35,853 bases of DNA from Clostridia bacterium (GTDB taxonomy: Bacteria; Bacillota; Clostridia; Oscillospirales; Acutalibacteraceae). Position numbers and translations under genes: made by a program. Below the pieces are notes generated by a model. The model did no database searches and was not told where the DNA came from. It saw nothing but the letters and a program-made list of their open reading frames with translations. Shown here one piece after another: positions 247 through 11,873 of the stretch (positions are counted from its first letter, which is position 1; each line of letters starts with the position of its first letter). Location of the stretch: the NCBI GenBank assembly GCA_017416285.1, contig JAFQCU010000004.1, positions 1-35,853 of the forward strand, given 5' to 3'.

Positions 247-945
247 TCAACAATCACATTTATATAAAAGTTTAATATCAAATTGACAATCCAACACACC
301 CTGCAAATCATCACATAAGCTCTTCATTTGCTCTATCTTGCGCTTTTTAAAAAAATCGCAAATTTTATAGCAAGTCAAAAAAACAAACGCTATAAAACCC
401 AATGTTAGTATAAATGCAATTGCATATGTAAACAGTGTAGTTAAATCTTTTTGTTCTTTTATTAACGTAGAAAAAATCGCGAGCGTAATTGGTATAATCA
501 GTATTTGTATCCATTTCTCAATTCGTTCTTGGGTAGTTATTCGTTGTTTTTCTTTGGATTCAATTTCTTTTTCTAAACGCCACATAAGTTCTATTATATT
601 TTCTCTTGTCATTACAAATCCAACTTTTACTAACCAAAAGCGTATTTTATCACAGTATTCTTTATAAATAATAAATTTCATATCGCTATTTTTAATTTGA
701 AAATTTTCCGTATAAAAATATAAAGAAATGTAAAATATTGCTTCAAGTAATAGGCAAATAAAACATGTTAAATATGTATATTTAACAATTGGGATGAAAA
801 TAGCAAGCAAATTTCCTATTAAAGTAAAACATAAACCGCCAAACAAAAGTTTAGCAGTAAGTGGTAGCTTAAAAATTGCCTTTGCAAAATTATCCTTATT
901 CTCTTTTTGAAATTTTCTATAACTGTTAAATAAAATAGTGTGCAT
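247..945 (-). CDS. Four-TM membrane protein of unknown function
   Basis: I do not recognise a family. The protein of 232 residues has two closely spaced hydrophobic segments near the N-terminus, a charged middle stretch rich in Glu, Lys and Arg, and two further hydrophobic segments before a basic C-terminal tail. I chose the ATG at 945 because AAGGAG lies 6 nt upstream; a start at 984 would add 13 residues but lacks such a site. It is AT-rich like the rest of the island and stands alone on the minus strand, divergent from the XRE gene at 1219. The paired-TM layout recalls SLATT-like membrane effectors of defence islands, but no diagnostic motif supports that. Role unknown. Confidence 0.7.
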   Translation of the reverse strand: MHTILFNSYRKFQKENKDNFAKAIFKLPLTAKLLFGGLCFTLIGNLLAIFIPIVKYTYLTCFICLLLEAIFYISLYFYTENFQIKNSDMKFIIYKEYCDKIRFWLVKVGFVMTRENIIELMWRLEKEIESKEKQRITTQERIEKWIQILIIPITLAIFSTLIKEQKDLTTLFTYAIAFILTLGFIAFVFLTCYKICDFFKKRKIEQMKSLCDDLQGVLDCQFDIKLLYKCDC

Positions 946-1135
946 ATATTTCTCCTTAAAACTTATTTTAAAAACAAAAGACATCCGCTACCTCGTTTTT
1001 TACAACTGAAAAATAACGATGAAAAATGTCCTATATGTTTTCCTAAAATACAACAAATTTCGACAATAAAGAGGGGACAATTTTTAAAAGCAATTTGCTA
1101 ATATATTAAATTATTTTGCACAAAATATTATTAAG

Positions 1136-1150
1136 TATCCTATTAGGATA
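1136..1150. promoter_or_regulatory. Palindromic operator upstream of XRE gene
   Basis: TATCCTATTAGGATA is a perfect interrupted palindrome (7-bp arms, one central base). A matching half-site TTAGGATA recurs at 1175-1182, next to a possible -10 (TACAAT, 1183-1188) of the XRE gene at 1219. Autoregulation by that XRE protein is the simplest reading. Confidence 0.5.
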
Positions 1151-1174
1151 TTTGCGTTATTCAGAAATTTCTAA

Positions 1175-1182
1175 TTAGGATA
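1175..1182 (+). promoter_or_regulatory. Operator half-site TTAGGATA
   Basis: Repeats one arm of the 1136-1150 palindrome and abuts the likely -10 region of the XRE gene. The same octamer occurs at 6189-6196, upstream of the 6-TM gene. Confidence 0.4.
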
Positions 1183-1218
1183 TACAATAACTTTAAAAGG
1201 TGTTTTGGTGGTGGAATA

Positions 1219-1563
1219 ATGGAGATAAATTATATAGCAATTGGTAAAAGAATACGACAACTTCGTATTGAACGAGGATGGAGTCAAGCAATGTTGGCTG
1301 AAAAATCAGGCGTTGAACCTTCTAATATATCGCATATTGAACGTGTTGCAACAAAATTGAGCTTACCCACGTTGGTAAATATTTGTAACGCATTGGGAGT
1401 AACTCTTGATGAAATCGTTTATGAAAGCTTAATTAAAAACGACCATATAATCTGCGATATAATAAACCAATTACTTGCTGACTGTACATCAAACGAAATT
1501 TCCGCTATAATCGAAATTGTAAAAACAACAAAAAGTATTTTAAGAAACGACGATAACAAATAA
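1219..1563 (+). CDS. XRE-family HTH transcriptional regulator
   Basis: DNA-binding protein of 114 residues. Residues ~7-63 form a Cro/C1-type helix-turn-helix: an RIRQLR first helix, a WSQAMLAEKSGV helix pair, the recognition helix around SNISHIER, then a LPTLVNICNALGV helix. The remaining ~45 residues are probably a helical oligomerisation tail. The ATG at 1219 follows a purine-rich GGTGG stretch. Upstream are the palindrome at 1136-1150 and a half-site at 1175-1182, suggesting autoregulation. The same motif upstream of the gene at 6271 suggests a small island regulon. The family assignment is secure; the ligand and targets are inferred. Confidence 0.88.
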   Translation: MEINYIAIGKRIRQLRIERGWSQAMLAEKSGVEPSNISHIERVATKLSLPTLVNICNALGVTLDEIVYESLIKNDHIICDIINQLLADCTSNEISAIIEIVKTTKSILRNDDNK

Positions 1564-1566
1564 TAT

Positions 1567-1594
1567 TTGACATAATTTTTGTTTGTTTTATAAT
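1567..1594 (+). promoter_or_regulatory. Consensus sigma-A promoter for the ECF sigma operon
   Basis: TTGACA (1567-1572), a 16-bp spacer and TATAAT (1589-1594) begin 3 nt after the XRE stop codon. Transcripts would carry a leader of about 140 nt before the sigma-factor gene at 1740. Confidence 0.7.
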
Positions 1595-1739
1595 TAAAAT
1601 GTATTATTTGAATTTATTTAAAACTTACTTCGGTAACGAGGTGAGTTATTGGTATATTTTGGATAATTAAATTTTGTACCCTGTTTTTACATATAAAGTG
1701 TTGTATATATGGAGACAGGGTTTGAAGGGGAACGTTAAA

Positions 1740-2324
1740 ATGCTGGCTCTATATTTAGCATATCTTGACGATGAAAACGATAAGGAACTGTTTGCACATA
1801 TTTATAATTCATACCGGAAGCAAATGGTTCAAACAGCCTTTTTAATTGTGAATAATAATCATGATGCTGAAGACGTTGTTGAAGAAGTATTTTTACGTAT
1901 AGCACAAAAATATTTTGATGTTGTGCGAAGCATAAAAGATGAAACCGATTTGCGCAACTATCTACTAAAAGCCGCAAAGAATACTGCTATTAGCAAGTCA
2001 AAATCCAAAAAGAAGGAAAACACATCTTTAGATACAGTTATAGAATATAATATGACTGATAATGAAGAATTGTCTGACGATACGTTTGTTGAATTTATAT
2101 GTAATAAAATTGATCGTGACCGAATAGTGGCGACTATTGAAAATTTGAGTGAAAAGTATCGCGACGTACTATATTATCATTTTGTGGCAGAGCTAACCGT
2201 ACCGCAAACTGCAAAGCTTCTTGACCAAACAACAAGCACCACAAAAAAGCAATTAGTTCGTGGCAAGAAAATGCTTTTAAGTATACTTGAAACAGAAGGA
2301 GTTGAAGATAATGGCAATCAGTAA
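1740..2324 (+). CDS. ECF-type RNA polymerase sigma-70 family factor
   Basis: Alternative sigma factor of 194 residues. Region 2 spans about residues 18-85 (ELFAHIYNSYRKQM, HDAEDVVEEVFLR, LRNYLLKAAKNTAI) and region 4 about 128-184 (LSEKYRDVLYYHF, then the helix-turn-helix ending in TKKQLVRGKKML). The ATG at 1740 has AGGGG upstream; a TTG start at 1674 would add 22 residues unlike the family N-terminus. A consensus housekeeping promoter lies at 1567-1594. The last 14 nt overlap the next gene, so the two are probably translationally coupled. The partner looks like a membrane-bound anti-sigma factor, so this is likely an envelope-signal pair. The signal and regulon are unknown. Confidence 0.88.
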   Translation: MLALYLAYLDDENDKELFAHIYNSYRKQMVQTAFLIVNNNHDAEDVVEEVFLRIAQKYFDVVRSIKDETDLRNYLLKAAKNTAISKSKSKKKENTSLDTVIEYNMTDNEELSDDTFVEFICNKIDRDRIVATIENLSEKYRDVLYYHFVAELTVPQTAKLLDQTTSTTKKQLVRGKKMLLSILETEGVEDNGNQ

Positions 2325-2979
2325 AGCTGAATTTAAAAAAGCTTTCCGTGAAGTCATTTCTTCTGAGTTTTCACATATTCCCAAAAACGAAGACGAAATT
2401 GATTTTGTGTTTTCGGAAGGCTTTAATAAGCGTATGGCAAAGCTAATCAATTCACAAAAGAAGGCCTATTATCATCTTATAAACACTGCTGCAAAACGCG
2501 TGGCGATTATTATTGTATTAATTCTTACAATGTTTACCGCCGCGTTCAGCGTAAAAGCAATTCGCGAGCCGATTATAGAATTTGTTAAACAAATTTATGA
2601 AACGTTTATACACTATTCGGTTGAAGGTGACACAACTGATAAAATAACTGAAGAATATAGTTTGACTAAATTACCAGATGGGTTTAATAAGACTAATGTA
2701 TTGCGGGATGATAATTTTGTGATCACAACTTACGAAAACGCATCAGGGGATATCATTGAGTTTACACAAACCACAACCGAATCTCATTCAGGGCATTTTG
2801 TAGATAATGAATCTGGAAATATTCATTCAGAAATGGTTGATGATATTAAAGTTGAATTTAAAGAGTGGAATTATATCAAGAATGCCATATGGATAGAACA
2901 TGGATATGTATTTACAATTGATTGCCATGGCGATTTTAGCTTTGATATGATCAAAGAAATGATACAATCTATCAAATAA
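2311..2979 (+). CDS. DUF4367-type membrane protein, likely anti-sigma partner
   Basis: Single-pass membrane protein of 222 residues: ~60 cytoplasmic residues, one TM helix at ~63-83, and an extracytoplasmic domain ending in a pattern typical of DUF4367 (IWIEHGYVFTIDCHGDFSFDMIKEMIQSI). Proteins of this layout beside ECF sigma factors in Clostridia usually hold the sigma factor at the membrane until a signal arrives. I chose the ATG at 2311, preceded by AGAAGGAG; a TTG at 2287 lacks support. The gene overlaps the sigma gene by 14 nt and is followed by a strong bidirectional terminator. No zinc-binding anti-sigma motif is visible, so the anti-sigma role is inferred from context. Confidence 0.75.
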   Translation: MAISKAEFKKAFREVISSEFSHIPKNEDEIDFVFSEGFNKRMAKLINSQKKAYYHLINTAAKRVAIIIVLILTMFTAAFSVKAIREPIIEFVKQIYETFIHYSVEGDTTDKITEEYSLTKLPDGFNKTNVLRDDNFVITTYENASGDIIEFTQTTTESHSGHFVDNESGNIHSEMVDDIKVEFKEWNYIKNAIWIEHGYVFTIDCHGDFSFDMIKEMIQSIK

Positions 2980-2985
2980 AATAAC

Positions 2986-3023
2986 GCACGGTGCACTTGA
3001 TAAATGCACCGTGCTACTTTTTT
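2986..3023. terminator. Bidirectional rho-independent terminator
   Basis: A perfect 10-bp stem GCACGGTGCA / TGCACCGTGC (2986-2995 / 3005-3014) with a 9-nt loop, then a T-rich tract. It sits between the convergent DUF4367 and DUF6147 genes and can serve both. Confidence 0.85.
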
Positions 3024-3471
3024 AATATGAGTCGGTTTTTTGCATTTCAATTTCGTCTGCCGAACCACCGGAACCGTAAATTTTATAATTTATGGTTACT
3101 CGATATGTACCTGATGCAGAAAGTTGGTGAGTACGCGACCCTGCATACATATAATCATATACTGTATCAACCCACTCATCATTAGTTGTGCCAATATCTA
3201 CTCGTTTCCAGAATAAACCCAAAAACTTCTTTTCAATATATGTAGTGATAACTGCTTTGGTTGTTATTGATGAAGAACCAGTATATCTATAGCTAATAGT
3301 CATTTTACCGCTATCGTTTATGCTCATAGCACCCGTTACTGTGCTTACATTATTATAACAGGGCATAACTTCAGTTTCAGGGGCTGTTGCGGCAGAAACG
3401 GGGCTTAACGGAACTACAAATAAACACATAATTAAAAGTGCGCTTATGATGCTTGTTAAACGTTTAGTCAT
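3022..3471 (-). CDS. Secreted DUF6147-family protein
   Basis: Small exported protein of 149 residues. It has a Sec signal peptide (basic MTKR, a hydrophobic core, likely cleavage after SPVSA, residue ~27) followed by a mature domain of about 120 residues rich in Ser, Thr and Tyr, probably a beta-sandwich. It resembles the DUF6147 family of Firmicutes, whose function is unknown. AAGGAG directly abuts an ATG at 3480 (spacing 0) but lies 9 nt before the in-frame ATG at 3471, so I chose 3471. It converges on the ECF sigma operon and shares its terminator. Regulation by that sigma factor is possible but no promoter evidence supports it. Confidence 0.7.
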   Translation of the reverse strand: MTKRLTSIISALLIMCLFVVPLSPVSAATAPETEVMPCYNNVSTVTGAMSINDSGKMTISYRYTGSSSITTKAVITTYIEKKFLGLFWKRVDIGTTNDEWVDTVYDYMYAGSRTHQLSASGTYRVTINYKIYGSGGSADEIEMQKTDSY

Positions 3472-3549
3472 TCTTTTCATCTCCTTTCTTACAATATTAA
3501 AGAAAAGTTTGCACTTCTCCTTAATAGTACAACAAACCAAAACAGTAAA

Positions 3550-3582
3550 CAGGTGACAAAATTTGTCAAATTTTGTCACCTG
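3550..3582. terminator. Perfect 33-bp palindrome followed by a T-tract
   Basis: Two 16-bp arms (CAGGTGACAAAATTTG and its exact complement) flank a single T, followed by a T-rich run (3583-3593). It is shaped like a rightward intrinsic terminator, but no rightward gene lies immediately upstream. It may insulate the CBASS operon, or be an operator or a recombination site. Confidence 0.55.
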
Positions 3583-3635
3583 TTTTTATTTTTGAAATGT
3601 TGTATATATGAGTAAAGTAAAAAGACATATGTAAA

Positions 3636-3660
3636 AAACATATTGCTTTTCCATATGTTT
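3636..3660. promoter_or_regulatory. Inverted repeat upstream of the CBASS operon
   Basis: AAACATAT and ATATGTTT (3636-3643 / 3653-3660) form an 8-bp inverted repeat with a 9-bp spacer, about 55 nt before the NUDIX effector start. A further CATATG lies at 3626-3631. A TATAAT at 3693-3698 is present but has no good -35. Possible operator; speculative. Confidence 0.3.
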
Positions 3661-3714
3661 ACTTGTTTCAAAACTAACTCACGATAAAAAACTATAATTT
3701 TAAAAGGAGTCAAA

Positions 3715-4518
3715 ATGAAAAAAACAATAATTTTTATAATAGGTTTTATAATTATTACCATTTTAACATGTATAGGTTCCATAAATAAAGCACCTCTTTG
3801 GACATGTTTAGGTTCAATAGCCTCGGCTGTTTTAGGCTGTCTCATTTCAAGCGTTTTTACATTTATTGATACACATAAAACAGATTGGAGACTTTGGCTT
3901 CAACAACTTAAATATCATAAAAAGGATATTAGGCTTTCGTTTTCCTATTTGTTTAGGATACAGGTAGATGGTAAATATCTTCTTGTAAAAGGAAATAGAT
4001 TAAAGAATCAGTATCAACCTATAGGTGGTGTATATAAATATTACGATGAAGCCAAACCGACGTTAGAAAGTTTTAATTTTCGACCTGACATTAGTATGGG
4101 AAATACAACTGAAACGGATGATTTGCGTATTTATATATCAGGAAAACATTTGCTTGATTTTATGCAGTGGTTCAGAAGTATGAAAGATAGAGAATATGAC
4201 CCAAAACGCGAATTTTACGAAGAGTTAATAGTATCTAAATTGCTTCCCAGGGATGCTTTTGAAAATATCGAATACCGCAAAGTTTGTGTTCACAATAATG
4301 GAGTGGAACATCCCGTGTTTATGAAATGTGATGAGCTAGTATATGCAGATATATTTGAAATAAAACTAACTGATAATCAAAAATCGGTCATAAGACAAGC
4401 CGTTAATGAGCATCCAGACATGCTATGTTTGGCTTCTGCAGAAGAATTAAGATGCGAGTGTTATAACGGAATTGAAAAAAATTTAGGCAATAATTCAAAA
4501 TGGCTATTAGGAGAATGA
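3715..4518 (+). CDS. CBASS effector: 2TM plus SMODS-associated NUDIX-like domain (Cap16-like)
   Basis: Membrane effector of 267 residues. Two TM helices (about 4-21 and 28-50) precede a soluble domain resembling the SMODS-associated NUDIX family: a strand with KYLLVKGNR (88-95), the loop QPIGG (101-105), then after a ~60-residue insertion a REFYEE helix (165-170) matching part of a Nudix box. In characterised 2TM CBASS effectors the soluble domain senses the cyclic nucleotide and the TM part disrupts the inner membrane, killing the infected cell. The start has AAAGGAG 5 nt upstream. It is the first gene of a tight operon with the CD-NTase (gap 2 nt). The family call rests on motif and context; the membrane-disruption role is inferred. 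Confidence 0.8.
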   Translation: MKKTIIFIIGFIIITILTCIGSINKAPLWTCLGSIASAVLGCLISSVFTFIDTHKTDWRLWLQQLKYHKKDIRLSFSYLFRIQVDGKYLLVKGNRLKNQYQPIGGVYKYYDEAKPTLESFNFRPDISMGNTTETDDLRIYISGKHLLDFMQWFRSMKDREYDPKREFYEELIVSKLLPRDAFENIEYRKVCVHNNGVEHPVFMKCDELVYADIFEIKLTDNQKSVIRQAVNEHPDMLCLASAEELRCECYNGIEKNLGNNSKWLLGE

Positions 4519-4520
4519 AA

Positions 4521-5630
4521 ATGAAAAATTATATAGAATCTATTCTATTTGGAATATGCGAAAAATTGCAATTGACACCTCAACTATACGAGTTGGCGAC
4601 TCAAAGGTATGAAACTATTATTGAGATTTTGCGAAAGGATGATGTCTTCAAACAAACTGAGTTAAATGTATACCCGCATGGTTCTTTTAAATTAAAAACA
4701 ACTGTCAAACCTCTTGCGGGCGAAGAATTCGATTTAGATTTTGTTGCGGAACTTCCTATCAATTCTAACATAACTCCCAAAGAATTATATAACCATATTG
4801 TAAGAATTCTTGATGACGACGCGTCCCATAAAGGAAAAATAGAACCAAAAACGCGTTGTGTTAGAGTTAATTACGCCAATGATTTTCATATGGATATTAT
4901 GCCTGGAAAACTTATTGACATTAAAACGCAAGAAATTATCGTACCTGACCGCGATTTAAAATCTTGGTATCATCATAGTAATCCCAAAGGATTTGCTGCT
5001 TGGTTTGAAAACCAAGCACGTACTCGACTTCTTTTTGAAATGTCTGAATTTCATCACGGCCAATTTGATGTCGAAGGTGTTTCAGAGCAAGAAATAACCG
5101 CACAATTAGAACCGCTTCGAAGGGCCGTCCAGTTAGTCAAAAGATACAGAGACATATATTGTGACAAAAACAATAAAGAACCCGTTAGAAGTATTGTTAT
5201 ATGCGCATTAATGGGTAATATTACAAGTTTTACTGGTAATACCATTCAAATCATTTCTTCTTTTTGCGCGCATGTTAATGATTTAATACAAAAAAGTAAC
5301 GGACAACCTTTTGATGTCAGGAATCCCGTTGTTAATGAGGTTTTGACGGAAAAATGGCACGAAGGAAATAACTATCAAGATTTTGTAGATATGATGAATG
5401 CTTTAACAACTGACATTTATGCTTTGCAGCAATGTTCTAATAATTCCGAAGCTAATCATCTAACGAAAAAAATGTTCGGAGAAGAAATAACAAACGCATC
5501 TATATTAAGACATACTAGAATTCTAAATGAGGCTCGTCAAGCAGGAAAATTATCGGTTGATAAATCCGGGACTTTAAATACACAAAATTTAGGAACACCC
5601 GTAAAAAAGAATACCTTTTATGGAAGTTGA
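4521..5630 (+). CDS. CD-NTase (SMODS cyclic oligonucleotide synthase) of CBASS
   Basis: cGAS/DncV-like nucleotidyltransferase of 369 residues. The catalytic core is visible: HGS at 53-55, the DLD pair at 71-73 and a third acidic residue in HMDIMPG (Asp125). All three metal ligands are present, so it should be active. Its product cannot be predicted from sequence. I chose ATG 4521 because AGGAG lies 7 nt upstream; ATGs at 4500 and 4515 would overlap the effector gene. It ends with a flexible tail (NTFYGS) whose small terminal residues suit E2-mediated conjugation. It sits between the 2TM-NUDIX effector and an E2-like gene, the layout of type II-short CBASS. Confidence 0.9.
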   Translation: MKNYIESILFGICEKLQLTPQLYELATQRYETIIEILRKDDVFKQTELNVYPHGSFKLKTTVKPLAGEEFDLDFVAELPINSNITPKELYNHIVRILDDDASHKGKIEPKTRCVRVNYANDFHMDIMPGKLIDIKTQEIIVPDRDLKSWYHHSNPKGFAAWFENQARTRLLFEMSEFHHGQFDVEGVSEQEITAQLEPLRRAVQLVKRYRDIYCDKNNKEPVRSIVICALMGNITSFTGNTIQIISSFCAHVNDLIQKSNGQPFDVRNPVVNEVLTEKWHEGNNYQDFVDMMNALTTDIYALQQCSNNSEANHLTKKMFGEEITNASILRHTRILNEARQAGKLSVDKSGTLNTQNLGTPVKKNTFYGS

Positions 5631-5639
5631 TATTTGACG

Positions 5640-6092
5640 ATGAGTTATGAGAAATTTTTCGCCATTCGACACTATACTCTTGCTGAGTTGGTTAGTCAAG
5701 CATCCGAGATAAAAAAGCATTATCCGCAAACCGTTTGGAAATGTAAAAGAGGCGCCATAGAAGTTACCTTAACTCTTAAACCGACGACAACATCCGTTAC
5801 CTACACGATTAAGTTGTGTGCAAAGCAGAATAGCACAACAGTCAATATTTTTGTTATTGAACCCAAAGTCAACTTTTTTAAAAATGGAAGAAAGGTTCCA
5901 CATTTATATTCAAATGGTTCACTTTGTCTTTATTATCCTAAATATAATGAGTTAAATTATAGTGATTTATGGGCAAAAACACTTATTCCATGGACATCGC
6001 TTTGGCTTTTTTATTATGAAGTTTGGAAAGAAACTGGTGAGTGGTTGGGCGGTGGGATACACGGCAAAAAGAATATTTCTCCTGAAGTTTTA
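5640..6092 (+). CDS. Stand-alone E2-like conjugating enzyme of type II-short CBASS (Cap2-like)
   Basis: Ubiquitin-conjugating (E2/UBC-like) protein of about 151 residues. The core reads PHLYSNGSLCLYYP (87-100), with Cys96 as the expected catalytic cysteine and His88 in the conserved position. It continues with the family block IPWTSLWLFYYEVWKETGEW and a GGG-I-H segment (137-141). Stand-alone E2-like proteins occur in short type II CBASS, where they replace the E1-E2 fusion and promote CD-NTase conjugation. No E1 or JAB protease gene is nearby. The ATG at 5640 is chosen; a TTG at 5634 is possible. It starts 9 nt after the CD-NTase stop and its weak GGAAG site lies inside that gene, so coupling is likely. 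Confidence 0.82.
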
Positions 6093-6186
6093 TAATATTT
6101 CATCTAACAACACTAATAACTGTTATATATAAATCAAAATTATTGACTTACCGGCAGGTTTAATTTAAATATCCTTGTTCTTTGCG

Positions 6187-6196
6187 TATTAGGATA
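6187..6196 (+). promoter_or_regulatory. TATTAGGATA operator-like motif
   Basis: Identical to the right part of the 1136-1150 palindrome; a partner TATCC lies at 6170-6174. A -10-like TAAAAT overlaps its end (6195-6200). The match suggests the gene at 6271 is under the same XRE regulator as the gene at 1219. Confidence 0.4.
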
Positions 6197-6270
6197 AAAT
6201 AATAACAAAAAAGTTGTAAAAATCATAATATTAGAAAATACTTATAATGTGGATTTGCAAGGAGTAAAAT

Positions 6271-7314
6271 GTGAAAAACAAATTAAATACAACTATTGAC
6301 TTGATTTCTTTTGAAAAAGAACATGGAAAAAATAAAACCGAAATGGTTTTGAATATAGGGGAGTTATTTTGGAAATTGCCCATATTGATCTGTTTTTATA
6401 CAGCTATGTGCACGATGACTACGGATGTTTTGCCAAACTATATTTCTAATATATGTGTTTCGTTAATAAACTTGATGTCAAACATTGCGTTATTAGTTGG
6501 TATGGCAATACTCGTTCGTGGTTATATAAAAGGCCACTCTAAAGAAGAATCTAAACTTAAAATCGAACAGATAATGGCAATTATTGATATAACATTACTA
6601 ATCCATGCCACTTATTTCCTGATAGCGGGTATATTAAAGGATAGCGGCATCTCTTTAGGAATGGCCCTAACCAATATTACACTTTATATTGGTTTTGCCG
6701 TTTCATTGGAAGACTTGTTGGATATCAAAAGCCTTAAAGATTTTTTGTGTTGTTTTTATAAACCATTTTCAAACATTAAATTAAGCAAAAAATGGTGGCT
6801 AATCATCTCTATATTTTTTATATTAATTGTATTATTTCTAATTTTGTGTTTATACAAGTTTACACTAATTATTGTTTGCGGATTATTGATAGTTTTATTA
6901 CTTACCTCGATTGTATTAAACACGGTTAGAAAAAACAGATTAAAAAAATTTAGCGATTATTTGGTTACTATCATTCCGGAAAATAATGTTTTGTTTTTGC
7001 AAATTGGTGCAGATTATGTAGTAATTAAATCAATAATGAAAATTTTAGGGCCACAATACTCAGTAAATGAAGTTTCTGATTTACATATAGAGAACTATGA
7101 TATGGTAGTGGTTTTAAATTCGTTAAGTAACAAAAGCGATTACATTTGTTATCTTGAACAAATAAAAGACAAAATCAAACACCATGGAATCATCATAGAT
7201 CCTTTTCTTGATAAACGAGGGAAAAAGAAAAAAATAGCAGCGTTTTTGGGTATACCTGTTTGCACAAATTCAAAGTATTTTGCGAAAGAATACTTTGATA
7301 TTTTACAAATTTAA
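6271..7314 (+). CDS. Six-TM protein with C-terminal Rossmann-like domain, unknown
   Basis: I do not recognise this family. The protein of 347 residues has ~30 soluble residues, then about six TM segments (roughly 34-54, 58-83, 99-121, 127-147, 175-195, 197-217), then a ~125-residue cytoplasmic domain. That domain begins with a strand-helix-strand pattern (NNVLFLQIGADYVVIKSIMK ... YDMVVVLNSLS) resembling a Rossmann-like nucleotide fold, and ends FDILQI. The GTG at 6271 has AAGGAG 6 nt upstream; an ATG at 6269 is followed directly by a stop. It lies 179 nt after the CBASS E2-like gene, with its own operator-like motif, and may be an accessory or independent defence membrane protein. Function unknown. 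Confidence 0.7.
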   Translation: MKNKLNTTIDLISFEKEHGKNKTEMVLNIGELFWKLPILICFYTAMCTMTTDVLPNYISNICVSLINLMSNIALLVGMAILVRGYIKGHSKEESKLKIEQIMAIIDITLLIHATYFLIAGILKDSGISLGMALTNITLYIGFAVSLEDLLDIKSLKDFLCCFYKPFSNIKLSKKWWLIISIFFILIVLFLILCLYKFTLIIVCGLLIVLLLTSIVLNTVRKNRLKKFSDYLVTIIPENNVLFLQIGADYVVIKSIMKILGPQYSVNEVSDLHIENYDMVVVLNSLSNKSDYICYLEQIKDKIKHHGIIIDPFLDKRGKKKKIAAFLGIPVCTNSKYFAKEYFDILQI

Positions 7315-7633
7315 GACAAAAATAACGATTGATATTTTAAAATTTTAAAAAAGTATTACCGATGGAAAAGGCTGTAAAAAATATTGAAAAAATTTTATTG
7401 CAAGAAGGAGTAATGTTTATGTGCTTACACATATGCCCAATAAGCTATAGAGGTGTCGATATAAAGGAACTATAGCTTCCTTGTAAAAATTGGCGAGCGC
7501 AATACATAAAAAGTTATATGTAATTCAACCCGAATTCTTTGTCAAAAAAATGAAATAAAAAATTGTCGAAATATGAAATGCGTTTCGTGGTAGTTTAATT
7601 ATTTTGGTTATATAATTAGCTCAAGGTGAAGAA
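7315..7633 (+). other. AT-rich spacer with a possible short ORF and hairpin
   Basis: A 319-nt gap. It contains an in-frame ATG to TAG ORF of 37 codons (7362-7475) whose internal ATG at 7413 follows AAGAAGGAG. Its end overlaps a perfect 9-bp inverted repeat AAGCTATAG / CTATAGCTT (7442-7450 / 7470-7478). A TATAAT at 7611-7616 may serve the XRE gene at 7634. Nothing else is recognisable. Confidence 0.4.
7362..7475 (+). CDS. Possible small ORF or leader peptide (37 codons, or 20 from 7413)
   Basis: An open frame runs from ATG 7362; the better start is ATG 7413, preceded by AAGAAGGAG. The 20-residue product from there begins MFMCLHICPISY and has two cysteines. The stop lies inside a 9-bp inverted repeat, an arrangement seen in leader-peptide attenuators, but the next gene is about 160 nt away. 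No homologue is recognised, and it may be a relic or chance ORF. Confidence 0.25.
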   Translation: MEKAVKNIEKILLQEGVMFMCLHICPISYRGVDIKEL

Positions 7634-7849
7634 ATGATTTTAGACGCTGAATTTATTGGCAATAACATTCGGGATATCCGTAAGGCCGCGAATAAATCAC
7701 AGGAAATGTTTGCTGAACAAATTGAAACATCAACACGTACTGTAAGCAATATTGAAAATGGAGTTGTTATTCCAAGTTTACAAACAATAGCTAATATTTC
7801 CGAATGCTTTAATCGTTCTGTGGATTCTATAATACGAAAGGAAAAATAG
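7634..7849 (+). CDS. Small XRE-family HTH regulator
   Basis: Compact DNA-binding protein of 71 residues, almost all of it the Cro/C1 helix-turn-helix: IGNNIRDIRKAANKSQEMFAEQI, then TSTRTVSNIENG as the recognition helix, then a LQTIANISECF helix. It resembles the one-domain repressors common in clostridial mobile elements. The ATG at 7634 is preceded by AAGGTGAAG. The DUF6514-like gene begins 3 nt after its stop, so the two form an operon ending at the 8132-8168 terminator. It is distinct from the XRE protein at 1219 and the shared operator motif is not seen upstream. Confidence 0.85.
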   Translation: MILDAEFIGNNIRDIRKAANKSQEMFAEQIETSTRTVSNIENGVVIPSLQTIANISECFNRSVDSIIRKEK

Positions 7850-7852
7850 TTT

Positions 7853-8080
7853 ATGTTACATACATATCAATTAAATGAATCTACTATAAAAGACAAGGAT
7901 GGAATTGTTTACACTGTTTACGGCATAGATGCTGTAGACAAGTCAGGAAAAATTGTTAATTCATTTAAAAAAATTTTCTTTGAACGTTCAAAGGCAGAAG
8001 AGTTGGTTGCTTTATGTAACGAAAACGAATTATCTTCAACTCACCTTGCAGATGTAGTAGAAGATGCACTTTACGAATAG
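7853..8080 (+). CDS. DUF6514-like small protein
   Basis: Protein of 75 residues resembling the DUF6514 family of Firmicutes: a strand YTVYGIDAVDKSGKIV, a central loop, and a C-terminal ELVALCNENELSSTHLADVVEDAL helix pair. The function of the family is unknown. The gene follows the XRE gene by 3 nt with GAAAGGA as binding site inside the preceding gene's end, so co-expression is near certain. A bidirectional hairpin terminator follows. The family name is from memory of the C-terminal CN...L...HL.DVVED.L pattern and should be treated as probable. Confidence 0.65.
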   Translation: MLHTYQLNESTIKDKDGIVYTVYGIDAVDKSGKIVNSFKKIFFERSKAEELVALCNENELSSTHLADVVEDALYE

Positions 8081-8131
8081 TCTATAGTATTTTAAATGTA
8101 TTATCAGCACATCTGATTCTTAAAAATTCAA

Positions 8132-8168
8132 AGCGGTAGAGAGTTATAATCTCTCTACCGCTCTTTAT
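8132..8168. terminator. Bidirectional hairpin terminator
   Basis: A perfect 12-bp stem AGCGGTAGAGAG / CTCTCTACCGCT (8132-8143 / 8151-8162) with a 7-nt loop, followed by CTTTATAG. It separates the convergent DUF6514 and tnpV genes. Confidence 0.8.
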
Positions 8169-8171
8169 AGT

Positions 8172-8549
8172 TTAGATATAAATCAATTCGTTATTTACGA
8201 TGTCAGTAGCTCTTTGGCGTATGTTATTCATACTTGCTACCCATTTCATTTGATTATTTGCTTTGAGTTGTTCTGTTATGCCTTCGTTTTTTGCCATTTC
8301 TTTTACTAGCTTAAAAAACATTTCTTGAGCTTCTTTATTAATGTTAGCAAGGTAGCGATTAATTTCACATTTCACCATCAACTTAGAATATAATCCTTTC
8401 CGATTGAGTTTTATGTATTCTAAATGGCGTTGTCCCCAAATTCCAATCTCTATCTTTTCTTCATCGGGCAGTTTCAGACAAGGAATATAATAATCGCCTT
8501 GAAGTTCGTAGCATAAACCATTATTTTCATCATAAATATACTTTTTCAT
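8172..8549 (-). CDS. TnpV-family transposon protein (orphan)
   Basis: Protein of 125 residues matching the TnpV family of clostridial Tn4451-like elements: an N-terminal YELQGDYYIPCL with LPDEEKIEIGIWGQRHLEYIK, the central CEINRYLANINKEAQEMF helix, and a C-terminal QLKANNQMKWVASMNNIRQRATDIV. The biochemical role of TnpV is not established. I chose ATG 8549, where the family N-terminus begins, with CAGGGGG upstream. No TnpX resolvase or other transposon gene is present in the window, so this is probably the residue of an element at the island edge, 107 nt from the tRNA-Ala fragment. Confidence 0.82.
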   Translation of the reverse strand: MKKYIYDENNGLCYELQGDYYIPCLKLPDEEKIEIGIWGQRHLEYIKLNRKGLYSKLMVKCEINRYLANINKEAQEMFFKLVKEMAKNEGITEQLKANNQMKWVASMNNIRQRATDIVNNELIYI

Positions 8550-8655
8550 AAAAATAACCCCCTGTATTTGGTAATACCATTTTACAAGGAGGTTTATTGT
8601 TTGTCGAATGTGCGAATTGCACATCCACAAAAACAGGGTGCGTTTTTAGGTGTAT

Positions 8656-8715
8656 GGGGAGAGCGTTTGACTGGCAGTCAAAAGGTCATGGGTTCGATCC
8701 CCACCGTCTCCACCA
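8656..8715 (+). tRNA. tRNA-Ala(GGC) 3' fragment (pseudo-tRNA)
   Basis: It contains the 3' half of a D arm (GGGGAGAGC), a complete anticodon arm TTTGA-CTGGCAG-TCAAA with anticodon GGC at 8673-8675, a variable loop, a T arm around GGGTTCGATCCCC (one A-C mismatch), the acceptor 3' strand CGTCTCC, discriminator A and encoded CCA. The matching 5' acceptor (GGAGACG) and a normal D arm are absent upstream: bases 8636-8655 do not fold properly and the spacing is about 4 nt too long. It therefore looks like the displaced 3' end of a tRNA gene left by integration, with the native terminator right behind it. An unusual but working tRNA is unlikely. Confidence 0.65.
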
Positions 8716-8829
8716 TTTTATTGAACACCTGTAACCTCGGTTATAGGTGTTTTTATTTATATGTCTAATCGGGATCGAACCCAAGAGGGTTTCGGCGATT
8801 TAAAAAGGTGCCGGTGGCACGTTTTTAGC
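8695..8829 (+). repeat. Direct repeat copy 1 (tRNA 3' end, terminator, hairpin)
   Basis: From CGATCCCCACC of the tRNA T arm through the terminator (AACACCT / AGGTGTT), an inverted copy of the T arm (GGGATCGAACCC, 8771-8782) and a hairpin with a GGT loop (8808-8820). It is about 95% identical to 8901-9036, offset 206 bp. Confidence 0.85.
8724..8760 (+). terminator. Intrinsic terminator of the tRNA-Ala remnant
   Basis: AACACCT (8724-8730) pairs with AGGTGTT (8745-8751), with inner pairing GTAAC / GTTAT, followed by TTTTATTTAT. A second copy lies at about 8930-8967 in the duplicate. Confidence 0.75.
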
Positions 8830-8900
8830 CGAAAGCGGCGCAGTCGGGTACCGAACGCAAAGCGTTGGGTCGACAAGCCATTAGTATGCGAAGCAGACGG

Positions 8901-9036
8901 CGATCCCCACCGTCTCCACCATTTTATTGAACACCTGTAACTTCGGTTATAGGTGTTTTTTATTTATATATCCAATCGGGATCGAACCCGAGAGGGTTTC
9001 GGCGATTTAAAAAGGTGCCGGTGGCACGTTTTTGGC
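8901..9036 (+). repeat. Direct repeat copy 2
   Basis: Second copy of the tRNA-Ala 3' end (to CCA), its terminator, the inverted T-arm copy and the GGT-loop hairpin. It differs from copy 1 by a handful of substitutions and one extra T. The copy breaks off just before the REP sequences that start near 9046. Confidence 0.85.
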
Positions 9037-9045
9037 TGACATACG

Positions 9046-9065
9046 AGAGAACCGTCCCTTGTGTT
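9046..9065 (+). repeat. REP-like sequence 1
   Basis: GAGAACCGTCCCTTGTGTT, of the same family as 9097-9115 and, inverted, 10026-10054 and 10466-10485. ACCGTCCC..TTGTGT repeats of this kind accompany RAYT transposases. Confidence 0.65.
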
Positions 9066-9096
9066 ATGTTTTTACCATATCTAGTATACTCTCACG

Positions 9097-9115
9097 CTAA
9101 CCGTCCCCTGTGTTT
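9097..9115 (+). repeat. REP-like sequence 2
   Basis: CTAACCGTCCCCTGTGTTT, in direct orientation to 9046-9065 and inverted to 10026-10054. The latter two bracket the zinc-ribbon gene. Confidence 0.65.
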
Positions 9116-9129
9116 ACTCTTTCGAATCA

Positions 9130-9972
9130 TCACCTTGTGTTCCATTTTGATGATAACTCCTCTTCTGTTATATGAAATTCTTTTACATCTTCATCAACAA
9201 ATTCACTGCGGCTATAAAGTTCCTTGCCCGTAGCACCATCTATCCAAACATATTTTACATAAATTTCCTCTGCCTTTTTTTGAGGGTCACTAAAAAATTG
9301 ATATAAATATAATTTATTCATCGCAGACGCAGCAGTCACAGTATCTGCTATCAAATTTTCCCTATAAAGATTTACGCATATTTCGTCAAAACTTGTAGAA
9401 ATATAAATATCATCGCTCCGTGATTTTGCAATTTCCTGCGCACATATAGCCAAAATTTTCTTGTTCTGCTCGTGACTCATTTTAATAATTACACTTCCGT
9501 CTTTTTTCTTTTTTACGAATGCAACATTTCCCTCGACTATTGTATTGTCACCTTTTGTAAAAATAAAATCAGAAATGCTAACTGGAAATGCTTCCTCAAA
9601 TTCTTTTGTCGAAATTGTAAAAGTGAGAAAATTTAGATGCTGAAAAAGTACCACAACAATAACAGATAAAACAGCTGTGAGAGCACCTAAAACGGCTTTT
9701 TTGTTAAACCCATCCTTAATGAATGATATAATAGCAAAAACAACTACCATAAATGCTGAAAAAAACATTAAATAAACGCTAGTATAATAAGGCGCTATAA
9801 ATATGTTGGATATAATATATACTATAGCAATTGTGAATATCATAATCCCACTTATTAAAACATTCTTTGAGTGATTCTTATAGGACGAATTGCAACGGCA
9901 ACCACATTCTGGACAAAACGCTTCAGATCTAGAAACGGCGCAACCACATGTTTTACAATATTTTATAGCCAT
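9130..9972 (-). CDS. Zinc-ribbon membrane protein of unknown function
   Basis: Protein of 280 residues. An N-terminal zinc ribbon (CKTCGC at 6-11, CPECGC at 20-25) is followed by about three TM segments (~37-58, 64-85, 93-112) and a C-terminal soluble domain of ~160 residues with no recognised motif. The four-cysteine ribbon plus TM layout is frequent in Firmicutes proteins of unknown role. The ATG at 9972 has GGAGAA about 10 nt upstream. The gene is isolated between REP-like sequences in opposite orientation (9097-9115 and 10026-10054) and beside a transposase remnant, so it may be a passenger rather than a core gene. Function unknown. Confidence 0.75.
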   Translation of the reverse strand: MAIKYCKTCGCAVSRSEAFCPECGCRCNSSYKNHSKNVLISGIMIFTIAIVYIISNIFIAPYYTSVYLMFFSAFMVVVFAIISFIKDGFNKKAVLGALTAVLSVIVVVLFQHLNFLTFTISTKEFEEAFPVSISDFIFTKGDNTIVEGNVAFVKKKKDGSVIIKMSHEQNKKILAICAQEIAKSRSDDIYISTSFDEICVNLYRENLIADTVTAASAMNKLYLYQFFSDPQKKAEEIYVKYVWIDGATGKELYSRSEFVDEDVKEFHITEEELSSKWNTR

Positions 9973-10025
9973 GTTACTTATTTCTCCAAGATATTGTTTT
10001 TATGTTTTACAAATTTTCATATATA

Positions 10026-10054
10026 AAGACACAAGGGGACGGTTCTATTGTGTT
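10026..10054 (-). repeat. REP-like sequence 3 (inverted)
   Basis: Contains ACACAAGGGGACGGTT, the reverse complement of the 9046 and 9097 repeats, followed by CTATTGTGTT. It sits directly behind the RAYT remnant's stop codon. Confidence 0.65.
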
Positions 10055-10055
10055 A

Positions 10056-10465
10056 TTAAAATTTTCTAACTATGTTAAACCCTATCCCTGTCAATCTCGA
10101 AATTTGTCTTATTGACAGCCCTTGATTTCGCAAAAGTTTCAAAAATTTATCCCTCTTTTCAATGGATAAATTTTGAAATTCAGTAATAGTACTGCATCTA
10201 GAAATCTTATGAATAATTTTTCTTGCCTCGTCGTCGGTTAATCTAAAATTATCTTCTTCAATTTCTAAACAAATATCTTGTGCATATTCAGCATTGAAAT
10301 CGATAAATTGTTCTTTATCGATAATACCAAGACAAAAATCAGTATCCACCATCAAAGACTTTCGTATATATTCATTATAACTGCTAAATTTATATCCGTC
10401 AATATTTTTACAAAATCCCGCTTTTATAGGATTTTGGTGTATATAACGAAGAACAGTCAAAAAAT
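10056..10465 (-). pseudogene. REP-associated tyrosine transposase (RAYT), N-terminus lost
   Basis: The C-terminal half of an IS200-like RAYT is clear: LRYIHQNPIKAGF followed by a domain ending in LLRNQGLSIRQISRLTGIGFNIVRKF, the DNA-binding tail of this family. The N-terminal part with the HUH motif and much of the catalytic region is absent; the frame runs upstream into a REP-like sequence (10466-10515) instead. Full-length relatives are considerably longer than the ~135 residues left here, so it cannot be catalytically active. REP-like repeats lie on both sides. It belongs to the same decayed mobile patch as 9046-10054. Confidence 0.8.
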
Positions 10466-10515
10466 GGACACAAGGGAACGGTTCCAAACACAAGAAAACC
10501 GTCCCCTTGTATCCC
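10466..10515. repeat. REP-like hairpin pair
   Basis: GGACACAAGGGAACGGTTCC (10466-10485) and AAAACCGTCCCCTTGTATCCC-like bases (10495-10515) are in inverted orientation and can pair as a hairpin. The element truncates the RAYT remnant and ends 2 nt before the gerB stop codon. Confidence 0.7.
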
Positions 10516-10516
10516 T

Positions 10517-11332
10517 TCAGTTTGCACGAACGTTAATCTCTTGCTTGATTACATTTATGCAAACTGTAATTTTAATGAGTGCTGTAACGAAATAAATAAA
10601 ATATGAAAAACCGTCCAATCGTGAAAATAAATTGCCAAAGGTTACGGTGCTTATCGCCATTGCATAAGGATAATCAAATTCCCCCGCCATTTGTGCGCCA
10701 AATAGTAAAACCGAATTGAAAATGCTTATAAGCAAAAATGCATTTCCAACGCAAATTCCCGAAAAAGCAACGGTTTTAGTTGTGTTTGTTTGCTTTGCAT
10801 ACAGGGTTAATACAGCGGTGGGTAACGTTACGGACTTTATATACGGCAAGGCTTGACTAAACAGATTATTTATTTTTGGAAACGAATAAATATAGATATT
10901 TTCGGGATTAAAATCCTTCAAAGTGGAAAAAAAGAAAAACACCAAAAGCAGACCGCATACCACACCGCAAACGAGCGAAAAATTGAAAATTTCGGTTGCT
11001 TTACGGAAGCAAAAATATATAAGCGTTGCCAAAAACAGCAGTAAAACCCAAAAATTTTGATTATTGTTTAACAAGGTTTGGCTGATAAACTGCAAAAAAA
11101 CAATCAAGGCTTCACCTACAAAATAAATCGCCAAAAACATAATAGGGTATTTTAAAAAATCGAATTTGTACACCGCAAAAATCAGAGCTATTGATAGCAA
11201 AAATGCAATTAAAAAGCCCAAAAAGGTTAATTTGTCGGCATTTTTAAATGGCAGGTTTATAATACTGCTACCCAAAATAAACAATGTGGAAAGCCATATA
11301 AAGTGATGCGCAAAAGGCTTTGAGTTATTCAA
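10517..11332 (-). CDS. GerAB-family spore germination permease (short form)
   Basis: Multi-pass inner-membrane protein of the GerAB / endospore germination permease family, which forms the nutrient-sensing subunit of germinant receptors. The N-terminal block (FIWLSTLFILGSSIINLP) and the C-terminal block (FGNLFSRLDGFSYFIYFVTALIKITVCI) both match the family. At 271 residues it is about 90 shorter than the usual ~360, so several internal TM helices are missing or compacted. It overlaps the gerC end by 8 nt and is last in a gerA-gerC-gerB operon. A REP-like element abuts its stop codon, so late truncation is possible, but the family C-terminus seems intact. Confidence 0.75.
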   Translation of the reverse strand: MNNSKPFAHHFIWLSTLFILGSSIINLPFKNADKLTFLGFLIAFLLSIALIFAVYKFDFLKYPIMFLAIYFVGEALIVFLQFISQTLLNNNQNFWVLLLFLATLIYFCFRKATEIFNFSLVCGVVCGLLLVFFFFSTLKDFNPENIYIYSFPKINNLFSQALPYIKSVTLPTAVLTLYAKQTNTTKTVAFSGICVGNAFLLISIFNSVLLFGAQMAGEFDYPYAMAISTVTFGNLFSRLDGFSYFIYFVTALIKITVCINVIKQEINVRAN

Positions 11333-11873
11333 AATAATACCCCTTTTCAGTAAGCGTTATTTTAGGCAGCACAGGGCTTTGGCTTTTGTAAATTTCAAAA
11401 AGGCGATTTTTAAGCGGTTTTTCAGTTTTTCGCATCATACTTACAAGGTCGTAACCAACACTGATTGACGAAATTGGCTCGGTTTGGAAAAGCTTTTGCG
11501 GACTTTCGGTTTCAATAAATTGTATCGACAAAGGAATATTGCGGTTTTCCTTGCAGTAACGCATAATCCCCAAAAGCTTGGTGCGGCTTATACCTTTTCC
11601 AACCGCAACTACACCGCAATGTGACATCAAAAGCGGAAGTGTTGCCTGCTTTTCAAGCTGTTCGACTGTCTTTAACAGTGTGCGGCCCTTTGCGGTTAAA
11701 ACCTCTCTTTTTTGGCTGTCCTTTTCGGTATTGGTAATCACAGCTTCAAAATAAAGGGTATAAAGTCCGCCGTCATAATCGGCACCAATGGCGGTTATCA
11801 AATATTCTTGCGGTTTTTGTCGGCAACCGCACAATAAAAGTGGGCACAAAAGTAAAATCATTAGTTTTTTCAT
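11325..11873 (-). CDS. GerAC-family germinant receptor lipoprotein (N-terminal domain only)
   Basis: Lipoprotein of 182 residues. The signal peptide ends in the lipobox LLCGC, and the domain starts YLITAIGADYDGGLYTLYFEAV, matching the GerAC N-terminal domain. Characterised GerAC proteins have ~370 residues in three domains; here the protein ends after ~165 mature residues with KITLTEKGYYFE. In receptors the C subunit is anchored to the outer face of the inner spore membrane. It overlaps gerA by 4 nt (ATGA) and gerB by 8 nt, so all three are translationally coupled. The missing C-terminal domains are notable because the neighbouring genes are in frame and intact. Confidence 0.72.
   Translation of the reverse strand: MKKLMILLLCPLLLCGCRQKPQEYLITAIGADYDGGLYTLYFEAVITNTEKDSQKREVLTAKGRTLLKTVEQLEKQATLPLLMSHCGVVAVGKGISRTKLLGIMRYCKENRNIPLSIQFIETESPQKLFQTEPISSISVGYDLVSMMRKTEKPLKNRLFEIYKSQSPVLPKITLTEKGYYFE

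What the first reader, a model, noticed from the sequence alone, without database searches (positions are those of the whole stretch)
3715..6092. Compact type II-short CBASS with a 2TM-NUDIX effector
Three tightly packed genes encode a 2TM-NUDIX-like effector, a CD-NTase with all three metal ligands (Asp71, Asp73, Asp125) and a stand-alone E2-like protein with Cys96. No E1 or JAB protease is nearby, as in type II-short systems. This effector type paired with an E2-only module in a Clostridia-like background is little characterised. The NUDIX fold may bind, or even cleave, the signalling nucleotide.
Basis: partly seen in the sequence, partly recalled or inferred. Interest (0 to 1): 0.78.

Follow-up and report, generated by a model that had tools for sequence, protein, structure and literature searches.

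The report
Three-gene E2-only CBASS phage-defence operon
This is a compact bacterial anti-phage operon in which an enzyme makes an alarm nucleotide, a ubiquitin-like partner probably switches that enzyme on, and a small membrane protein probably kills the infected cell; it belongs to a known kind, and its effector's highly conserved but unexplained enzyme site is the interesting open question.

Summary
Window 3715-6095 holds three packed genes: a two-helix membrane protein with a Sa_NUDIX domain, a CD-NTase (Asp71/Asp73/Asp125) and a stand-alone E2 (Cys96). None of 16 ORF products scanned between 247 and 11873 hit an E1 or JAB model. It is a type II-short CBASS; cyclase and E2 best match the two partners of one solved Serratia complex (8hsb).

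The arrangement recurs: 27 of 80 Sa_NUDIX loci kept from public genomes carry cyclase plus E2. Two results bear on mechanism. First, the E2-linked cyclases of this set end in aromatic-Gly/Ala plus 1-3 residues (25 of 25 distinct unfused; 1 of 41 without this E2). Seven natural cyclase-E2 fusions keep that motif at the junction. In a wider set, four E2-linked cyclases have a variant tail (F-E-G-N-x). Second, the Nudix residues RE-x-x-EE are kept in 79-80 of 81 members in every context, although a review reports that a NUDIX mutant of Cap16 stays toxic.

Verdict: real, intact, a new member of a known kind.

The parts
3715..4518 (+). 2TM-NUDIX (Cap16-like) effector, 267 aa
   Evidence: PF18167 194 bits, residues 71-249; PADLOC 2TM effector PDLC00667 214 bits; PADLOC RTasNUDIX 189 bits
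3727..3783 (+). hydrophobic segment 1 (residues 5-23)
   Evidence: Kyte-Doolittle mean 2.84
3811..3867 (+). hydrophobic segment 2 (residues 33-51)
   Evidence: Kyte-Doolittle mean 1.92
4207..4224 (+). Nudix helix motif R165-E-F-x-E-E170
   Evidence: R165, E166 and E170 kept in 80 of 81 and E169 in 79 of 81 aligned members; the gapped member (L054) is a split fragment, and L089 has Lys at 169
4500..5630 (+). CD-NTase (cyclase); likely start ATG 4521 (AGGAG at 4509-4513), 369 aa
   Evidence: PADLOC PDLC00815 289 bits; SMODS PF18144 57 bits; PDB 8hsb_A SmCdnG E 4.8e-23
4731..4739 (+). D71-L-D73, expected catalytic metal ligands
   Evidence: sequence; role by family knowledge
4893..4895 (+). D125, expected third catalytic carboxylate
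   Evidence: sequence; role by family knowledge
5610..5627 (+). cyclase C-terminal tail NTFYGS, predicted E2 substrate
   Evidence: aromatic-[GA]+1-3 residues in 25 of 25 distinct unfused E2-linked cyclases of the NUDIX-based set, 1 of 41 distinct cyclases without this E2; SmCdnG 8hsb_A aligns as KNTFYG ending at 406 of 407
5634..6095 (+). stand-alone E2-like protein; TTG 5634 or ATG 5640
   Evidence: PADLOC PDLC00863 132 bits; PDB 8hsb_B E 1.4e-12
5925..5927 (+). E2 active-site Cys96 (98 from the TTG)
   Evidence: 27 of 27 aligned E2s have Cys here, in [LV]CL[YFT]; His90 (TTG numbering) also 27 of 27

Best explanation
A type II-short CBASS anti-phage operon. Shown by sequence: an intact CD-NTase active site, an E2 with the conserved Cys, a cyclase tail like that of the Serratia enzyme, and a two-helix membrane protein with a Sa_NUDIX domain. 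Inferred from the Serratia system: E2 trims the cyclase tail at the aromatic-Gly site, carries the cyclase on Cys96 and links cyclases to lysines (other cyclases or host proteins), which primes nucleotide synthesis. Inferred: during infection the cyclase makes a cyclic oligonucleotide, probably a cGAMP-like dinucleotide. The cytosolic NUDIX domain binds it in its metal-containing pocket, the effector oligomerises, and its two helices breach the inner membrane, so the cell dies before phage release.
For: Profiles for all three proteins. Cyclase and E2 best match the two partners of one solved complex, 8hsb. Catalytic residues present. In the NUDIX-based set the tail tracks E2: 26 of 26 unfused against 1 of 45, or 25 of 25 against 1 of 41 without duplicates. 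Seven cyclase-E2 fusions keep [H/N]-R-N-Y-G-[G/S] at the junction, all with a NUDIX effector upstream. The three genes are shared in order with L011 (61/65/57% identity) and L012 (50/58/49%), while outside them only short scattered translated matches of at most 51 residues occur, which bounds the system. Print: type II-short cyclase-cyclase conjugation (PMC11153139 passage); a table row listing Y405 cGASylation by E2 that promotes cGAS activation (PMC12135389 passage), Y405 being the Tyr before the Gly in SmCdnG by the alignment; Cap16 toxic through membrane damage by oligomerisation, NUDIX mutant still toxic (PMC10419184 passage).
Against: No activity is shown for any of the three proteins. 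The signalling nucleotide is unknown; the NCBIfam cGAS model scores 62 bits, well below its 150 cut-off. The NUDIX domain has no match among PDB sequences even by profile, so ligand binding is inference. The tail rule is not universal: of nine further split E2-linked cyclases met, three fit, one has aromatic-Gly with a longer tail (L123), four end F-E-G-N-[ILV] (L119, L120, L122, L124) and one is a broken piece (L121). The aromatic-Gly/Ala pattern was widened from Gly after I saw the tails of L057 and L072 (then 90); with Gly only, 23 of 25 distinct tails have Gly after the aromatic residue (tails; the Gly-only count printed agrees at 23, though it passes over L057 only because of its length limit). 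Related sequences are counted, not independent events. The NUDIX mutant result, as the review reports it, argues against a need for catalysis in killing and does not explain why the site is so strictly kept.
Confidence: 0.8

Rival explanations
1. The NUDIX domain is an active enzyme, not only a receptor: it hydrolyses the cyclic signal (a timer or off-switch) or another nucleotide, and the helices mainly anchor it or act in parallel.
For: R-E-x-x-E-E is kept in E2-linked (27), cyclase-only (41) and cyclase-less (13) members but for L054 (fragment) and one Glu of L089, while the median column top-residue frequency is 0.41. A pure binding fold would usually relax some catalytic carboxylates (inference).
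Against: Gly to Arg spacing is 56-64 residues (79 members measured) against about 14 in the canonical Nudix box (recalled), so the box is interrupted. A review says a NUDIX mutant of Cap16 stays toxic. G104-G105 are also invariant, but lie in one of the two search patterns and are partly selected.
Confidence: 0.2
2. E2 works as a binding scaffold or sensor for the cyclase without tail processing or conjugation.
For: No E1 model was hit nearby, so canonical ubiquitin-like activation is not evident in the operon. Some E2-linked cyclases have a different tail, F-E-G-N-[ILV].
Against: Cys is kept in 27 of 27 E2s, the tail tracks E2 in the NUDIX-based set, and fusions keep the site at the junction. 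Published Serratia work, seen only through citing passages, concerns E2-dependent cyclase conjugation.
Confidence: 0.1
3. A decayed cassette left in a variable region, no longer functional.
For: Similarity to sister genome G027 ends at window position about 3564, and a TnpV gene and what reads as a partial tRNA lie downstream, so the region looks mobile. The cyclase search matched 2 of 61 genus genomes including this one, the other with a different effector.
Against: All three frames are intact with catalytic residues, and gene order and overlaps match L011 and L012.
Confidence: 0.05

Closest known systems
Type II-short CBASS of Serratia marcescens (SmCdnG-E2, PDB 8hsb, 8yjy, 9kkb)
   Same: CD-NTase plus stand-alone E2, tail KNTFYG plus one residue, E2 LCL motif
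   Different: Moderate similarity only (cyclase 85 bits, E2 51 bits); the Serratia effector was not compared here; this one is in a small Clostridia-type genome with a 2TM-NUDIX effector
Cap16 / PADLOC 2TM effectors (2TM-NUDIX)
   Same: Two N-terminal hydrophobic segments plus Sa_NUDIX PF18167; PADLOC 2TM effector models at up to 214 bits
   Different: Founding Cap16 sequence not compared directly; the review passage does not describe its operon
Butyricicoccus pullicaecorum ET57 locus L011 and Lachnospiraceae MAG locus L012
   Same: Same three genes in the same order, 49-65% protein identity
   Different: Unrelated flanks in the DNA held; tails FFGG and FYGE instead of FYGS
Type II CBASS with Cap2 (E1-E2) and Cap3 (JAB)
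   Same: Cyclase C-terminus joined through an E2-type Cys (PMC10097602, PMC11153139 passages)
   Different: No E1 or JAB found here; tail is aromatic-Gly plus residues rather than a terminal Gly or Ala
PADLOC RTasNUDIX / DRT with RT UG23
   Same: Same NUDIX effector family; the window protein scores 189 bits to the RTasNUDIX model
   Different: The neighbouring gene is a reverse transcriptase, confirmed at the two loci tested, L038 and L045; L038 also has a cyclase-like ORF upstream of it

Membership tests
CBASS type II-short | CD-NTase with [DE]xD and third Asp | tested here: met
CBASS type II-short | Stand-alone E2 with conserved Cys | tested here: met
CBASS type II-short | No E1 or JAB in the operon | tested here: met
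   No E1/JAB model listed for 16 ORF products at 247-11873 (Pfam all 16, PADLOC 10); the rest of the window only read
CBASS type II-short | Cyclase tail of the E2-substrate kind (my criterion, from SmCdnG and this set) | tested here: met
   NTFYGS; 25 of 25 distinct unfused against 1 of 41; F-E-G-N-x variants exist elsewhere
CBASS type II-short | E2-dependent processing or conjugation of the cyclase | not testable with these tools
   Needs biochemistry
CBASS type II-short | Defence against phage by cell death | not testable with these tools
   Needs phage challenge
2TM-NUDIX effector (Cap16-like) | Two N-terminal helices plus Sa_NUDIX | tested here: met
   (helices by hydropathy only)
2TM-NUDIX effector (Cap16-like) | Predicted fold compared with Nudix proteins | not tested
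   Structure prediction switched off; profile search of PDB sequences gave no match
Active Nudix hydrolase | REUxEE metal site | tested here: met
   REFYEE; 79-80 of 81 members
Active Nudix hydrolase | Canonical Gx5Ex7REUxEE spacing (recalled) | tested here: not met
   56-64 residues from GG to R in 79 members
Active Nudix hydrolase | Hydrolysis of an NDP-X or cyclic nucleotide | not testable with these tools
   Needs enzyme assay

The most novel reading that the evidence does not exclude
The 2TM-NUDIX effector is both receptor and enzyme: its nearly invariant, interrupted Nudix site breaks down the signal that opens the pore, giving CBASS (and the reverse-transcriptase and type III systems that borrow the effector) a built-in timer. 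In the same family E2 acts as a self-contained protease-ligase that needs no E1, and natural cyclase-E2 fusions are polyproteins that E2 cuts at the retained aromatic-Gly junction to make the active cyclase.
Probability: 0.15. Interest if true: 0.7.

Novelty: new member of a known kind. Interest (0 to 1): 0.36.

Why it matters
As a locus it adds a clean three-gene example with an effector family that has no match among PDB sequences. The comparison makes two questions directly testable. Why is the Nudix metal site kept in 79-80 of 81 members if a mutant stays toxic? And do the natural cyclase-E2 fusions self-cleave, which would show in one polypeptide that E2 alone processes the cyclase tail?

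Tried and rejected
Rejected: the gene at 6271-7314 as a fourth component. It has no PADLOC hit and no Pfam hit over a cut-off, no match in the other 61 genus genomes searched, and is absent from the shared block of L011 and L012. Also rejected: an E1 or JAB nearby.

Led nowhere: single-protein scan of genome contigs with the effector (no relative; the alignment-based scan, worked); viral-contig scan (none by tblastn); PDB by effector sequence and profile (one search shows three receptor chains at E 0.15-0.16, taken as chance); Rfam on the window (none at gathering threshold); promoter scan (19 sites against 13.7 expected, not informative). A plan to predict structures of the effector and of a natural cyclase-E2 fusion was dropped because the tool was off.

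Count caveats. One search kept the best 80 of 141 relatives. Tail counts use 74 of 87 loci (the window, L002, L005-L007, L009, L010 and the 80); 13 have no cyclase hit. Six of the 74 repeat another's cyclase end: L014=L006, L020=L005, L025=L024, L058=L056, L079=L074, L085=L084. L074 and L079 tails come from the downstream piece of an interrupted cyclase gene. L110 is 98% identical to L085. Some E2-less cyclases are broken or cut. The first tail pattern (aromatic then Gly) was widened to Gly or Ala for after I saw L072; L057 fits only through Ala or an earlier His-Gly. One search repeats five places seen before (L100=L085, L101=L084, L102=L070, L106=L082, L114=L078) and one interrupted gene (L117=L074); its nine new split E2-linked cyclases are told in the Against line. 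The scan patterns include QP[IV]GG[VA]Y and YL[FY][RK]I..D, so those columns are partly selected; REFxEE was in no pattern. L025 and L035 carry a different, longer E2 family and tails with KPW plus 3-4 residues; they count as 'without this E2', and L024, L028, L030 have KPW tails too but their neighbours were not scanned.

Full report
What is there. Window 3715-6095 carries three genes on the + strand. The effector gene (3715-4518) overlaps the cyclase ORF; the likely cyclase start, ATG 4521, follows AGGAG at 4509-4513. The E2 begins 3 bases after the cyclase stop (TTG 5634) or 9 bases after it (ATG 5640).

Identity. The effector matches Sa_NUDIX (PF18167, 194 bits) and PADLOC 2TM effectors (up to 214 bits); two hydrophobic segments precede the domain. 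The cyclase matches SMODS and PADLOC cyclases, and SmCdnG of PDB 8hsb (E 4.8e-23). The E2 matches PADLOC E2 families and the E2 chain of the same entry (E 1.4e-12). Cyclase and E2 thus find the two partners of one solved complex. No E1 or JAB model was listed for 16 nearby ORF products (Pfam all 16, PADLOC 10 of them).

Bounds of the system. L011 (Butyricicoccus pullicaecorum) and L012 (a Lachnospiraceae MAG) share the three genes in order at 61/65/57% and 50/58/49% identity. Outside the three genes, translated comparison with the window leaves four short matches for L011 and three for L012, of 18-51 residues and scattered, and nucleotide comparison leaves none. L011 holds only about 1.2 kb beyond its E2. 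In its own genus a search with this cyclase matched 2 of 61 genomes counting this one (which examined 99 genomes in all, 2 with a match); the other, G012, pairs cyclase and E2 with an HNH-SAVED effector. In sister genome G027 the upstream module is shared at 81.5% DNA identity up to window position about 3564 and then differs. So the operon looks like a transferable cassette in a variable region.

How common. An alignment-based scan of genome contigs found 141 relatives of the effector and kept 80. Of these 80, 27 have cyclase and this E2 family, 40 have a cyclase in the locus without it and 13 have neither; at least one of the 27 is a duplicate (L079). Tested partners in other contexts: HORMA and TRIP13 at L050 (type III), reverse transcriptase UG23 at L038 and L045, and a longer E2 family at L025 and L035. 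The effector is a module shared between several defence systems; PADLOC already holds an RT-associated NUDIX model.

The cyclase tail. Of 87 loci compared, 74 have a cyclase hit. In 29 with E2, 26 cyclases are unfused and all 26 end in an aromatic residue, Gly or Ala, then 1-3 residues (window: KNTFYGS); of 45 without this E2, one (L032) fits the pattern. Without duplicates this is 25 of 25 against 1 of 41; 23 of the 25 have Gly, and L057 and L072 have Ala. The pattern was widened to Ala after the first count. SmCdnG ends the same way, KNTFYG plus one residue. Against a universal rule: of nine further split E2-linked cyclases seen, three fit (L115, L116, L125), L123 has the motif with a longer tail, four end F-E-G-N-[ILV] (L119, L120, L122, L124) and L121 is a broken piece. 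Only L115 and L116 of these nine show the NUDIX effector in the stretch held. So the rule is tight for E2 operons with a NUDIX effector and looser elsewhere.

Fusions. Three of the 29 E2 loci are cyclase-E2 fusions (L070, L084, L085). A search of 349 genomes of the family of L085's genome matched 18, of which five carry a fusion, four of them new (L110-L113). All seven fusions keep [H/N]-R-N-Y-G-[G/S] at the junction, and all have the NUDIX effector upstream; L084/L085/L110 are nearly identical. Records of Maribacter litoralis carry one fused and one split copy on separate small contigs. A cut site retained inside a fusion is what a self-processing polyprotein would look like. This is inference from sequence.

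What is in print. [quoted passage not shown] A table in PMC12135389 (passages) lists Y405 cGASylation by E2 and cites Yan et al. 2024, which is not held and whose abstract I only recall; the trimming and Cys-carrier steps in my mechanism rest on that recall. PMC10097602 (passages) gives a terminal Gly or Ala for Cap2 systems and reports no conserved C-terminus in operons lacking Cap2 and Cap3 or lacking an E2 domain. For the effector, PMC10419184 (passages) says Cap16 is toxic through membrane damage by oligomerisation and stays toxic with a NUDIX mutation; the primary paper is not held. Listings that showed nothing closer on this effector by title: (one search listed 20 of 33). The phrase 'type II-short CBASS' gave no paper. 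A search on fused E2 and cyclase terms listed four papers, of which I saw passages of three (for two; the third, PMC12355090, only as a listing), so two were looked into; neither passage set describes a cyclase-E2 fusion.

The NUDIX site. In 81 aligned members, G104-G105, D136, R138 and R159 are invariant; R165, E166 and E170 are kept in 80 and E169 in 79; the gapped member, L054, is a fragment, and L089 has Lys at 169. The pattern holds in 27 E2-linked, 41 cyclase-only and 13 cyclase-less members. The median column top-residue frequency is 0.41. The spacing from GG to REFxEE is 56-64 residues, so the Nudix box is interrupted by an insert compared with the canonical box (recalled). No PDB sequence matches by profile. 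Selection on the metal site is therefore strong, while the reported mutant says killing does not need it. Either the site binds the signal through metal at native expression levels, or it hydrolyses something in a step that overexpression toxicity does not reveal.

Mechanism and confidence. Shown: gene content, order, catalytic residues, tail motif, family distribution. Inferred: E2 trimming and conjugation, nucleotide synthesis on infection, NUDIX sensing, membrane breach. I hold the family assignment at above 0.95 and the full chain at about 0.8 as the best single account.

Verdict. A sound first-stage call. The locus is a new member of a known kind. Interest is moderate and lies mostly in the two testable family-wide observations: the retained Nudix site and the retained cut site in natural fusions.

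Noticed in passing
L070, L084, L085, L110-L113: Seven natural cyclase-E2 fusions keep [H/N]-R-N-Y-G-[G/S] at the junction; Maribacter litoralis records hold both a fused and a split copy.
   Followed up: partly
L119, L120, L122, L124: E2-linked cyclases whose tails end N-F-E-G-N-[ILV] instead of aromatic-Gly/Ala; effector not seen in the stretch held.
   Followed up: no
L025:7957-8790, L035:7934-8659: 2TM-NUDIX operons with a longer, different E2 family (PADLOC PDLC00871) whose cyclases end in KPW plus 3-4 residues rather than aromatic-Gly.
   Followed up: partly
L038:2549-6786: A cyclase-like ORF, a reverse transcriptase (UG23) and the 2TM-NUDIX gene lie together; L044 has the same pattern of sizes (the RT was tested in L038 only).
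   Followed up: partly
L007:1-3583: In genome G299 a cyclase and 2TM-NUDIX pair lies next to an ORF that reads like a subtilase-type serine protease (by reading only).
   Followed up: no
L074:7516-11296 (= L079): Cyclase gene interrupted by an insertion with a transposase-like ORF (IS1595-like by reading) and two further ORFs; described only.
   Followed up: partly
window 3547-3585: Near-perfect 18-bp palindrome where similarity to G027 ends (the long match runs into it); a second G027 stretch upstream of the module, L098 700-761, matches window 3516-3577 at 79%.
   Followed up: partly
window 8660-8716: Reads like the 3' part of a tRNA (anticodon loop CTGGCAG, CCA end) with no 5' half; ARAGORN and Rfam do not call it, and its 47-base core has no other copy in the genome with up to 3 mismatches; part of it recurs at about 8905.
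   Followed up: partly
window 8172-8630, - strand: TnpV (PF14198, 147 bits), a transposon-encoded protein near the cassette.
   Followed up: no
window 6271-7314: 347-aa protein with three hydrophobic segments, no Pfam family over its cut-off, no PADLOC family and no match in 61 other genus genomes.
   Followed up: partly
L138:446-3332: Same-genus genome G012 has a type II-short CBASS with an HNH-SAVED effector and cyclase tail NTFFGD.
   Followed up: yes
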